The position numbers and the translations under genes were made by a program. The notes under the pieces were generated by a model that was not told the origin of the DNA, did no database searches, and saw only the letters and a program-made list of their open reading frames with translations. Positions 62,328 to 64,000 of a stretch of 64,000 nucleotides of DNA are shown here, piece after piece. The first letter of the stretch is position 1. Every line of letters starts with the position of its first letter. This stretch comes from Flexivirga endophytica (lineage in GTDB: Bacteria > Actinomycetota > Actinomycetes > Actinomycetales > Dermatophilaceae): positions 248,001 through 312,000 of the forward strand of contig NZ_BMHI01000003.1 of assembly GCF_014640635.1 (NCBI RefSeq). The letters are read 5' to 3'.

Positions 62328-62400
62328 GCACCCGTAGCTCAACGGATAGAGCATCTGACTACGGATCAGAAGGTTTGGGGTTCGAATCCCTACGGGTGCA
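62328..62400 (+). tRNA. tRNA-Arg(ACG)
   Basis: 73 nt, full cloverleaf: acceptor GCACCCG/CGGGTGC, D-arm GCTC-AACGGATA-GAGC, anticodon stem TCTGA/TCAGA with loop CTACGGA (anticodon ACG), T-arm TGGGG-TTCGAAT-CCCTA, discriminator A. CCA is not encoded. A TAGAGT box at 62290-62295 is a plausible -10 element. TadA (encoded at 55327) would edit A34 to inosine. Its 3' end is a typical attachment site for integrases, and accessory genes follow. Confidence 0.98.
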
Positions 62401-62425
62401 CGTACTGAGTTGAGACGGTGCAGGA

Positions 62426-62457
62426 CCCCGGTCGACGGATGCGTCGGCCGGGGTTTT
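62426..62457 (+). terminator. Intrinsic terminator of the tRNA-Arg gene
   Basis: CCCCGGTCGAC and GTCGGCCGGGG form an 11-bp stem (one G-T pair) with a 6-nt loop, followed by TTTTCTCT. It is the only classic rho-independent terminator with a T run among those noted in the window. Confidence 0.92.
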
Positions 62458-62504
62458 CTCTGCCCTAAACTGCCGACACAGCACCGCTTCAGGGGAAGGC
62501 AGCC

Positions 62505-62900
62505 ATGGCCAGGCAGATCGACGTCGTCGGGGCCGTGCTGACGCGCGACACCACCGTGCTGGCGGCGCAGCGCGGACCGTCGATGGCGCTCGCCGGCCAC
62601 TGGGAGTTCCCGGGCGGCAAGATCGAACCCGGCGAGTCGCCGCAAGAAGCCCTGGTCCGAGAGCTCCGGGAAGAACTGCTGTGCGACATCGTCGTCGGCG
62701 AACACGTCGAGACGACGTCGCACGAATACGACTTCGGCGTCGTCACGCTCACAACGTTCTTCGCGACGCTGGAGTCGGGCGAGCCGCGTGCGACCGAGCA
62801 CTCCGAGCTCCGCTGGATTCCGGTCCAGGACCTGCAAGGCGTCGAGTGGGCGCCCGCCGATGTCCCCGCGGTCAAGCACGTCATACGAGCGCTGCAGTAG
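62505..62900 (+). CDS. MutT-type NUDIX hydrolase (8-oxo-dGTP diphosphatase-like)
   Basis: 131 residues, MutT size. VVGAVLTRDTTVLAAQRGPSMALAGHWEFPGGKIEPGESPQEALVRELREELLC (in pieces) has the R-x-x-x-x-x-x-x-x-WEFPGGK substrate segment and the Nudix box G-x5-E-x7-RELREE. It should hydrolyse oxidised dGTP or CTP-type nucleotides. It stands 7 bp before a PLD-helicase gene in the same direction, and NUDIX genes are frequent partners of such helicases, so the two probably form one functional unit. Confidence 0.9.
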   Translation: MARQIDVVGAVLTRDTTVLAAQRGPSMALAGHWEFPGGKIEPGESPQEALVRELREELLCDIVVGEHVETTSHEYDFGVVTLTTFFATLESGEPRATEHSELRWIPVQDLQGVEWAPADVPAVKHVIRALQ

Positions 62901-62907
62901 GCGCACG

Positions 62908-64000
62908 ATGGATCCAGCCGTCGGACAGATCCGGCTCGACAACACGTTCGGTTTCCTCGACCGGACGGCCGGCACCGACCAGCTCTTCCACCCGCTGCTG
63001 GTGTCCAACCGCGACGACAACACCATGGCTCGCGCCATTCGTGCGGAGTTGCGGCGGTCCCGCAGCTTCACCTTCTCGGTCGCGTTCGTGACGCCCAACG
63101 CGGTCGCACTGCTGAAGCAGGCGCTGCTCGACTTCCCGGGACAGGGCACGATCATCACGTCGACCTACCAGGGCTTCAACTCACCGGCCGCGTTCCGTGA
63201 ACTGCTCAATCTGCCGGGCGTGCGCGTGCTGGTCCATCCGTCGGGGCAGGCAGGGTTCCACGCCAAGGGCTACGTCTTCGACCAGGACGCGAGCACCACT
63301 GCCATCGTTGGCAGCTCGAATCTCACGAGCCAGGCGCTGCTGAAGAACCACGAGTGGAACCTGCGCTTCTCCGCGCTGCCGGACGGCGACATCGTCGAGC
63401 AACTCGATCGCGCGGTCGCAGCGCAGGTTGCCGAGTCGACCCCGCTCACCCACCGGTGGATCGACGCGTATACAGAGACCTGGCACCCGCCGGCAACACG
63501 TCACTTCCTGGAGCCGGACCCCGAGCCACTCGCCTCGACAACGGGCGTCGTCCCGAACCGCATGCAGGCTGATGCGCTCGCCGAGATCGAGCAGTTGCGC
63601 CGCCGCGGGGAGCGACGCGGCATCGTGGTGTCGGCCACCGGCACCGGCAAGACGATCCTCGCGGCGCTCGATGTGCGCGCGGCGGCCCCGGAGCGGATGC
63701 TCTTCGTGGTGCACCGGGAGCAGATCCTTGACCGCGCCATACAGGACTTCCAGCGGGTGCTCGGCGCTCCGGCAGCGGACTTCGGCAAGCTGGCCGGTCC
63801 CTCTCGTGAACCTGATCGCAAGTACGTGTTCGCGACAGTGCAATCACTCACCCGGCCGGCCACGCTCGCGCAGATCGCGTCCGACGCGTTCGACTACGTG
63901 CTGGTCGATGAGGTCCACCGGGCCGGGGCCGATTCCTACCGGCGACTGATCGACCATTTGAGCCCGTCTTTCTTGTTGGGCGTGACCGCAACCCCCGAAC
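62908..64000 (+). CDS. PLD-nuclease/DEAD-like helicase fusion (partial, 3' end beyond the window)
   Basis: 364 codons are visible; no stop is met. Residues about 30-175 form a phospholipase D-like nuclease domain: FTFSVAFVTPNAVALLKQAL, then the HKD motif FHAKGYVF (H118, K120) and GSSNLTSQALLKNHEWN. A superfamily 2 helicase follows: MQADALAEIEQL (Q-motif region), Walker A SATGTGKTILA with K248, the motif II box DEVH near 334, and VTATPE at the window edge. The layout is that of the roughly 1000-residue PLD-helicase-DUF3427 proteins. Such proteins occur in defence and repair neighbourhoods; that role is inference. Confidence 0.87.
   Translation, partial: MDPAVGQIRLDNTFGFLDRTAGTDQLFHPLLVSNRDDNTMARAIRAELRRSRSFTFSVAFVTPNAVALLKQALLDFPGQGTIITSTYQGFNSPAAFRELLNLPGVRVLVHPSGQAGFHAKGYVFDQDASTTAIVGSSNLTSQALLKNHEWNLRFSALPDGDIVEQLDRAVAAQVAESTPLTHRWIDAYTETWHPPATRHFLEPDPEPLASTTGVVPNRMQADALAEIEQLRRRGERRGIVVSATGTGKTILAALDVRAAAPERMLFVVHREQILDRAIQDFQRVLGAPAADFGKLAGPSREPDRKYVFATVQSLTRPATLAQIASDAFDYVLVDEVHRAGADSYRRLIDHLSPSFLLGVTATPE

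What the first reader, a model, noticed from the sequence alone, without database searches (positions are those of the whole stretch)
62328..64000. NUDIX plus PLD-nuclease/helicase pair directly downstream of tRNA-Arg
The MutT-like gene and the PLD-helicase fusion are 7 bp apart and follow a tRNA gene, a classic integration site. A nucleotide-cleaning NUDIX linked to a nuclease-helicase is a plausible anti-phage or DNA-damage system: the helicase/PLD would process DNA and the NUDIX would act on nucleotides. I cannot see the 3' end, other genes, or an integrase.
Basis: partly seen in the sequence, partly recalled or inferred. Interest (0 to 1): 0.65.

Follow-up and report, generated by a model that had tools for sequence, protein, structure and literature searches.

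The report
Restriction enzyme with nucleotide-cleaning partner
This gene pair is an enzyme of the kind that cuts DNA carrying methylated cytosine, next to an enzyme that probably destroys methylated-cytosine building blocks before they reach the cell's own DNA; across many bacteria the two change in step at the very residues predicted to recognise the base.

Summary
A tRNA-Arg is followed by a NUDIX gene and, 7 bp later, a PLD-helicase that runs past the window and ends in DUF3427. The helicase is a full-length homologue of SauUSI, the Type IV enzyme that cuts 5mC/5hmC DNA; five of six modelled 5mC-pocket residues match. A tRNA integration site is not supported: no exact tRNA-end repeat, no tyrosine integrase on the contig. 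The NUDIX-nuclease link is real: 66 of 80 named SauUSI loci in two orientations, 7 of 7 in the own phylum, 32 of 32 Asp-type lactobacillar reading frames. Enzymes with Asp at the base-reading position of the SRA pocket have a NUDIX with Asp at its base-reading position; enzymes with Asn there mostly have none, or one with Asn or Ser. Each position best predicts the other protein (rank 1 of 905 and 1 of 129 columns), with 5-7 concordant and 0 opposed independent changes. Both therefore probably read the same base. Best explanation: the NUDIX removes 5-methyl/5-hydroxymethyl-dCTP, so polymerases cannot write the nuclease's target into the chromosome. Parts and covariation are shown; substrate and protective role are inferred. 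In the library searched, the pairing appears only as an unexplained co-localisation in Streptococcus suis.

The parts
62328..62401 (+). tRNA-Arg (ACG); a conserved neighbour, not a demonstrated attachment site
   Evidence: syntenic in 5 of 5 genus members with the upstream SMP30 gene
62422..62457 (+). hairpin with T-rich tail between tRNA and pair, terminator-like
   Evidence: sequence; fold -30.3 kcal/mol, z -5.6; not listed by the consensus scan
62505..62900 (+). NUDIX hydrolase (131 aa), PDC-S07 type, base-reading Asp119; inferred 5-methyl/5-hydroxymethyl-dCTP pyrophosphohydrolase
   Evidence: Pfam NUDIX 3.4e-20; PDC-S07 1.8e-51; PDB 5x1x 2.9e-41, MutT2 1.3e-27, NudG 1.7e-22, 3gwy 5.7e-18; Asp119 aligns to NudG Asp118, MutT2 Asp116 and MutT Asn119
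62908..64000 (+). SauUSI-type Type IV restriction enzyme, 5' part (PLD nuclease HxK at 118/120, start of SF2 ATPase); the CDS continues outside the window to C3:313808 with the C-terminal DUF3427/SRA reader
   Evidence: 966 aa; PDB 7clg 3.5e-221 over 15-956; mREase_IV 735.8 bits; catalytic and pocket residues

Best explanation
The nuclease is a SauUSI-type Type IV restriction enzyme. Its C-terminal SRA domain flips out and reads 5-methyl- or 5-hydroxymethylcytosine in incoming DNA, its ATPase translocates, and its PLD dimer cuts. Such an enzyme cannot protect the host by methylating it; the host DNA must stay free of the mark. [quoted passage not shown] The danger would be greatest after the nuclease has destroyed modified foreign DNA and released 5-methyl-dCMP for salvage. 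Shown here: the architecture, the linkage, and the covariation of the two base-reading residues. Taken over from SauUSI by homology: the mode of reading and cutting. Inferred: the NUDIX substrate (about 0.75) and the self-protective purpose (about 0.5).
For: Nuclease identity: full-length match to 7clg; HxK, Walker A, DE box and pocket residues Tyr831, Phe841, Ile842, Asp858, Trp868 present at P0002 834/846/847/863/873. Linkage: NUDIX adjacent in 66 of 80 named loci, 55 upstream co-directional and 11 downstream convergent; in 7 of 7 full-length SauUSI among 396 genomes of the own phylum; in 0 of 30 divergent DUF3427 PLD-helicases of the same sample (contig-limited). Covariation: in 179 non-redundant enzymes, Asp/Glu-type have NUDIX-Asp 99 and none 4; Asn-type have none 58, NUDIX-Asn 7, NUDIX-Ser 6, NUDIX-Asp 5. 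The SRA position is rank 1 of 905 nuclease columns for predicting a NUDIX-Asp partner (phi 0.85, next 0.67). NUDIX 119 is rank 1 of 129 columns for predicting the partner's SRA residue (phi 0.83, next 0.68). Independent changes 6-0-2 and 7-0-2 (p 0.031 and 0.016). Bacillota sample: of 12 enzymes not seen before, 10 of 10 Asp-type have NUDIX-Asp and 0 of 2 Asn-type have a NUDIX. PDC-S07 NUDIX in 0 of 61 genomes of the Lactobacillus family without SauUSI. Substrate: the NUDIX paired with SauUSI on a Hymenobacter plasmid is nearest in the PDB to 3gwy (3e-41), which is Q5LBB1 of B. fragilis, kcat/Km 4.8e6 for 5-Me-dCTP and 4.4e6 for 5-hydroxymethyl-dCTP (PMC5158307 passages). Asp reads cytosine and Asn uracil in thymidylate-synthase-type enzymes (PMC5175136, PMC8670742 passages).
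Against: No biochemistry on this pair. Almost all Asn-type enzymes found are lactobacillar, so the independent changes are few; with the whole recognition region left out and without the extra sample the result was 5-0-2, p 0.0625. Five of 76 Asn-type enzymes keep a NUDIX-Asp, and 4 of 103 Asp-type lack a neighbouring NUDIX; three of those four genomes carry PDC-S07 elsewhere, the fourth does not. The host genome has two C5-methyltransferase genes of unknown sites, which must avoid the nuclease's site. C5-methyltransferases were not significantly rarer in Asp-type than in Asn-type genomes (4 of 29 against 14 of 51, p 0.26). NUDIX orthologues persist without the nuclease in two genus members. 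MutT2, one of the relatives, also digests ordinary dCTP (PMC10742078 passage). That Asp118/Asp116/Asn119 contact the base in NudG/MutT2/MutT is recalled, not read here.
Confidence: 0.6

Rival explanations
1. Two-layer attack: the NUDIX does not mainly protect the host but starves phages that build modified DNA, by hydrolysing their 5-methyl- or 5-hydroxymethyl-dCTP pool, while the nuclease cuts whatever modified DNA is made.
For: Same linkage and covariation; the B. fragilis relative hydrolyses 5-hydroxymethyl-dCTP about as fast as 5-Me-dCTP; both genes match PADLOC defence models.
Against: Asp-type nuclease is almost never without NUDIX-Asp (4 of 103; 3 of these 4 genomes have it elsewhere), which looks like a requirement rather than an optional second weapon. 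In the Lactobacillus family the NUDIX was not found alone (0 of 61), whereas an independent weapon should sometimes travel alone; but two genus members of the window genome do have it alone.
Confidence: 0.25
2. General nucleotide housekeeping: the NUDIX is an ordinary MutT/MutT2-type pool sanitiser that happens to sit in defence neighbourhoods.
For: Relatives include MutT2 and NudG; orphan copies in two genus members; the three genus members with PDC-S07 lack the MutT2-like gene that the other two carry, as if it could stand in for it.
Against: Adjacent to SauUSI on either side (55 upstream, 11 downstream); absent from 61 of 61 genomes of the Lactobacillus family without SauUSI; position 119 tracks the partner's base-reading residue.
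Confidence: 0.1
3. One reading: a mobile anti-phage or DNA-damage island integrated at tRNA-Arg.
For: The pair does travel: complete pairs on the three plasmids looked at, all typed mobilizable (13 plasmid records had a match). A full-length nuclease was not found in 35 other genomes of the family (a few of them incomplete).
Against: No exact repeat of the tRNA 3' end in 35.6 kb; no PF00589 integrase on this contig; the NUDIX orthologue is near the same tRNA in two relatives without the nuclease. Serine recombinases were not searched for.
Confidence: 0.05

Closest known systems
SauUSI (Staphylococcus aureus Type IV restriction enzyme, PDB 7clg; PMC7913695)
   Same: Full-length homology (3.5e-221), PLD HxK nuclease, SF2 ATPase, coupler and SRA reader; modelled pocket residues Tyr831, Phe841, Ile842, Asp858, Trp868 conserved
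   Different: The wedge residue Met829 is Tyr832 here; the paper does not mention a NUDIX partner (nudix 0, mutT 0 occurrences)
PDC-S07 (PADLOC phage-defence candidate)
   Same: The NUDIX matches at 1.8e-51; PDC-S07 and RM type IV co-localised in 23 of 23 S. suis occurrences (PMC12813430 passage)
   Different: Catalogued as a single-gene candidate; the passages seen give neither a nucleotide role nor a link to base recognition. In S. thermophilus it is listed but not among the systems cloned and tested (PMC11514479 passages)
B. fragilis Q5LBB1 (PDB 3gwy), E. coli NudG, mycobacterial MutT2
   Same: NUDIX hydrolases active on 5-methyl-(d)CTP (PMC5158307, PMC10742078 passages), with Asp at the position of P0001 Asp119
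   Different: Treated as stand-alone sanitisers in the passages seen; NCBIfam PRK10546 (104.9 bits, cut-off 156) is not reached
PDB 5x1x 'Mutator mutT protein'
   Same: 97% identical to the NUDIX beside SauUSI in a record whose host is given as Staphylococcus aureus; Asp118
   Different: Deposited as a MutT; no paper on 5x1x itself was searched for, so whether its depositors noted the neighbour is unknown

Membership tests
SauUSI-type Type IV restriction enzyme | N-terminal PLD nuclease with HxK | tested here: met
   H118/K120, conserved in 87 of 87 homologues aligned
SauUSI-type Type IV restriction enzyme | SF2 helicase-like ATPase motifs | tested here: met
   ResIII and Helicase_C; K248, D334/E335, R538 in 87 of 87
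SauUSI-type Type IV restriction enzyme | C-terminal SRA/DUF3427 reader with 5mC pocket | tested here: met
   DUF3427 6.3e-85; Tyr831, Phe841, Ile842, Asp858, Trp868 matched, Met829 not
SauUSI-type Type IV restriction enzyme | Cleavage dependent on 5mC or 5hmC | not testable with these tools
   needs purified protein
NUDIX hydrolase | Nudix box GX5EX7REUXEEXGU | tested here: met
   G38-x5-E44-x7-RE-xx-EE present, these residues in 73 of 73 partners; the box's final Gly-hydrophobic is Leu-Cys here, so met only for the catalytic part
5-methyl-dCTP pyrophosphohydrolase (NudG/MutT2/Q5LBB1 type) | Asp at the base-reading position (MutT Asn119 column; role recalled) | tested here: met
   Asp119; 70 of 73 partners
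5-methyl-dCTP pyrophosphohydrolase (NudG/MutT2/Q5LBB1 type) | Orthologue of NudG (NCBIfam PRK10546 cut-off) | tested here: not met
   104.9 bits against cut-off 156
5-methyl-dCTP pyrophosphohydrolase (NudG/MutT2/Q5LBB1 type) | Hydrolysis of 5-methyl-dCTP | not testable with these tools
   needs enzyme assay
tRNA-integrated mobile island | Direct repeat of tRNA 3' end downstream | tested here: not met
   no exact repeat of 15 bp or more in 35.6 kb
tRNA-integrated mobile island | Integrase nearby | tested here: not met
   7 PF00589 hits in the genome, none on contig C3; serine recombinases not tested

The most novel reading that the evidence does not exclude
A two-letter recognition code links a restriction enzyme to a nucleotide-pool enzyme: Asp in both pockets means a modified cytosine, Asn in both means a modified uracil or thymine such as 5-hydroxymethyluracil. 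Asn-type SauUSI enzymes would then be an undescribed class of restriction enzyme against phages with modified thymine or uracil. 'Clean the precursor pool' would be a new kind of restriction self-immunity, standing where a methyltransferase stands in classical systems.
Probability: 0.3. Interest if true: 0.88.

Novelty: new variant of a known kind. Interest (0 to 1): 0.75.

Why it matters
How a host with a modification-dependent nuclease keeps its own DNA unmarked is rarely asked, because lacking the methyltransferase is assumed to be enough (my view, not searched). The covariation suggests that precursor-pool hygiene is part of the system, gives a function to a catalogued defence candidate (PDC-S07), and connects two solved structures (7clg, 5x1x). 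It makes single-residue predictions about which base each enzyme reads, testable with standard assays, and points to Asn-type SauUSI enzymes as candidate readers of a different modified base.

Tried and rejected
Tried and not supported, or led nowhere. (1) tRNA attachment site and integrase: not found. (2) Replacement of the NUDIX by a MazG-type pyrophosphatase in NUDIX-less loci: a MazG next to a GIY-YIG/Schlafen-group-3 helicase does occur near some pairs (L219, L127 and L148), but one search found no MazG of this kind in the NUDIX-less loci, so rejected. (3) C5-methyltransferase depletion in Asp-type genomes: 4 of 29 against 14 of 51, p 0.26, inconclusive. (4) C5-methyltransferase next to the nuclease: 2 loci (L266, L299), both Asn-type, of 196 loci scanned with 4 query methyltransferases; suggestive only. 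(5) Viral carriage: the viral-contig scan returned one distant partial relative. (6) Papers: MutT Asn119 (0 hits); Orf135/Asp118 (nothing relevant in the 12 listed of 267); the original SauUSI paper and the MutT2 enzymology paper are not held. Base-contact residues of MutT, NudG and MutT2 are therefore recalled. (7) Fold prediction was not run, since both proteins have solved homologues.

Rows dropped before counts, and slips. In one search one badly broken copy (G717) was not fetched; the other rows were read from 102 loci (30 given, 72 fetched). One search counted 116 reading frames: 110 lactobacillar, fragments included, and 6 from plasmid or phage records; a NUDIX counted as adjacent within 1500 bp. 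One search kept 193 of 203 with a readable SRA residue and over 700 aa, then 184 distinct, then 179 after thinning at 95% identity with the same state. The Bacillota sample was not wholly new: of 16 full-length enzymes L334, L336 and L339 are identical to earlier ones and L333 is 97.7% identical to one. L334 was left out, the other three were not; 15 rows were added there. Five further matches were partial or divergent and had no NUDIX. The two-copy test (13 of 14 genomes with one Asp and one Asn copy, tallied by eye; p 1.4e-4 by binomial with an assumed Asp share of 0.31) ignores relatedness; three of the 14 are similar tandem loci. The C5-methyltransferase count used 80 of 87 genomes with intact enzymes. 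Searches were translated out of frame and repeated; one query (a downstream secreted protein) was out of frame and was repeated.

Full report
What is there. tRNA-Arg(ACG) 62328-62401 is followed by a strong hairpin with a T-rich tail, a NUDIX gene 62505-62900 and, after 7 bp, a 966-aa PLD-helicase-DUF3427 gene from 62908 to C3:313808. Downstream come a GNAT-like gene, a probable secreted protein and, on the other strand, a sugar-catabolism cluster; these three are named by eye from the translations.

The nuclease. It matches the S. aureus enzyme SauUSI over its whole length (7clg, 3.5e-221) and PADLOC's Type IV model (735.8 bits). The SauUSI paper (PMC7913695; I read one section and search passages) models the 5mC pocket with Met829, Tyr831, Phe841, Ile842, Asp858 and Trp868, and places Asp858 to make the base-specific hydrogen bonds. 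In the alignment the last five are Tyr834, Phe846, Ile847, Asp863 and Trp873 here; Met829 is Tyr832. HxK and the ATPase residues checked are invariant in 87 of 87 aligned homologues. By the sequence features tested this is a SauUSI-type enzyme.

The NUDIX. Its best solved relatives are 5x1x ('Mutator mutT'), mycobacterial MutT2, 3ees (probable pyrophosphohydrolase) and E. coli NudG, with B. fragilis 3gwy further down. It matches PADLOC's candidate PDC-S07 (1.8e-51). 5x1x is 97% identical to the NUDIX beside SauUSI in an S. aureus-associated record. Asp119 aligns with NudG Asp118, MutT2 Asp116 and MutT Asn119. NudG, MutT2 and 3gwy/Q5LBB1 hydrolyse 5-methyl-(d)CTP, MutT2 less selectively. Q5LBB1 acts on 5-methyl-dCTP at 4.8e6 per M per s and on 5-hydroxymethyl-dCTP at 4.4e6 (PMC5158307 passages; PMC10742078 passages; PMC3744803 passages). 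A NUDIX paired with SauUSI on a Hymenobacter plasmid is nearest in the PDB to 3gwy, that is Q5LBB1 itself (3e-41).

Linkage. In 80 named full-length SauUSI loci (the best of 578) a NUDIX of this type lies in 66: 55 upstream co-directional, 11 downstream convergent, all but four within 200 bp of the nuclease match. These include Actinomycetota, Bacillota, a Flavobacteriales bin, Methanobrevibacter and a Bathyarchaeota bin. Among 396 genomes of the own phylum, 7 carry a full-length enzyme (over 560 bits) and 7 of 7 have the NUDIX beside it, in two arrangements. Thirty divergent PLD-helicases of the same sample have none within 10 kb (only 11 have any listed NUDIX on the same contig, and many genomes are fragmented). 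Seven divergent proteins, chosen because complete, carry a weaker DUF3427, and in 13 divergent proteins aligned the pocket Tyr831 is Val (12) or Ala (1). One divergent enzyme, in G046, does have a NUDIX beside it.

Covariation. Of the 14 NUDIX-less loci among the 80, ten have Asn instead of Asp at SauUSI position 858. I then sampled the family of one of these, an uncultured Lactobacillus: 93 of 301 genomes have the enzyme. In the reading frames, Asp-type enzymes have an adjacent NUDIX with Asp119 in 38 of 38 (32 lactobacillar, 6 from plasmid or phage records). Of 73 Asn-type, 56 have none within 1500 bp, 7 have Asn119, 5 Ser119 and 5 Asp119. In some searches no Asn119 or Ser119 NUDIX stands beside an Asp-type enzyme. 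Scanning columns, position 863 is the best of 905 nuclease columns for predicting a NUDIX-Asp partner (phi 0.854, next 0.670). Position 119 is the best of 129 NUDIX columns for predicting the partner's SRA residue (phi 0.829, next 0.677). Because most Asn enzymes are related, I counted independent changes. With the recognition residue left out: 6 same, 0 opposite, 2 unchanged (p 0.031). With the whole recognition region left out: 5, 0, 2 (p 0.0625). With 15 rows added: 6, 0, 2 (nuclease-helicase part only, p 0.031) and 7, 0, 2 (p 0.016). All these trees are quick or FastTree trees. A sample of 398 genomes from another centre, in Bacillota, gave 16 full-length enzymes: 14 Asp-type, 13 with NUDIX-Asp, and 2 Asn-type with none. 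Four of the 16 had been seen before; of the 12 new ones 10 of 10 Asp-type have NUDIX-Asp and the 2 Asn-type, at most 51% identical to any earlier enzyme, have none. In 61 genomes of the Lactobacillus family without SauUSI the PDC-S07 NUDIX is absent from 61; of 18 Asn-type genomes without a neighbouring NUDIX, 2 have it elsewhere. Thirteen of 14 genomes with two SauUSI copies carry one of each type, as expected if the types have different targets.

Reading. Asp against Asn is a known cytosine/uracil switch in thymidylate-synthase-type enzymes (PMC5175136 passages; PMC8670742 passages). That the same pair of letters changes in step in the DNA-reading pocket of the nuclease and the nucleotide-reading pocket of the NUDIX is best explained if both read the same base, one in DNA and one as a triphosphate. 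The near-requirement of NUDIX-Asp for Asp-type enzymes (102 of the 106 counted before thinning, with 3 of the 4 exceptions carrying one elsewhere in the genome) resembles a protective partner. I therefore favour precursor-pool hygiene as self-protection over starving phages of precursors, but only at about two to one.

History at this locus. tRNA-Arg and the SMP30 gene are in 5 of 5 genus members. G001 and G002 have orthologous NUDIX genes near that tRNA (71% and 81% identical, one clade, SH-aLRT 93, nested among SauUSI-linked NUDIX) but no full-length nuclease. G003 and G004 have neither there. The simplest history is that the pair was present in the ancestor of three species and the nuclease was lost from two; direct gain in the window genome is not excluded. 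No full-length nuclease was found in the 35 other genomes of the family searched. Complete pairs occur on the three plasmids looked at, typed mobilizable, from Lactiplantibacillus, Latilactobacillus and Hymenobacter (13 plasmid records had a match).

Novelty. The library searches 'nudix' with 'SauUSI' (1 paper, an unrelated use by the passage seen), 'nudix' with 'type IV restriction' (2 papers, judged by title and start of abstract), 'DUF3427' (2 papers, passages read) and 'PDC-S07' (6 papers; passages read in two) show one prior report of co-localisation (S. suis, 23 of 23), without a role in the passage seen. This covers only the open-licence library. SauUSI and PDC-S07 are each known. The pairing across phyla and the covariation of base-reading residues are, as far as these searches reach, new.

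Noticed in passing
L273, L274, L281 (G652, G586, G702): Tandem SauUSI paralogues in one locus, one Asp-type next to NUDIX-Asp and one Asn-type; 13 of 14 two-copy genomes carry one of each type.
   Followed up: partly
L219:8862-10942; L127:10751-12972; L148:5073-7188: A MazG-type nucleotide pyrophosphohydrolase followed by a GIY-YIG/Schlafen-group-3-like helicase gene sits near some NUDIX-SauUSI pairs; a second pyrophosphohydrolase linked to a nuclease-helicase.
   Followed up: partly
L103:5868-11254 (G046): A divergent DUF3427 PLD-helicase with an adjacent 45%-identical NUDIX and a GIY-YIG/Schlafen-group-3 helicase gene; the one divergent enzyme seen with a NUDIX neighbour.
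   Followed up: partly
G000-G004: Within the genus, the three genomes with PDC-S07 NUDIX lack the roughly 95-bit MutT2-like NUDIX that the other two carry, a possible functional displacement.
   Followed up: no
L266:5207-6199 and L299:4901-6139: C5-cytosine methyltransferase genes directly next to Asn-type SauUSI, hard to reconcile with a 5mC-cutting enzyme unless the Asn type does not read 5mC at that site.
   Followed up: partly
G000:C1:657309 and C10:3686: The host genome has two C5-methyltransferase genes of unknown specificity despite carrying a 5mC-type nuclease.
   Followed up: partly
L246, L249, L252, L253, L258: Five Asn-type enzymes are paired with a NUDIX of lower similarity (108-119 bits) that has Asn119, perhaps a separately recruited lineage.
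   Followed up: no
L096:14526-15347 (G001): The secreted-protein gene two genes downstream of the window's nuclease has a 48%-identical relative about 6 kb beyond the NUDIX in G001, with other genes by eye in between, so the interval behind the NUDIX differs between species.
   Followed up: no
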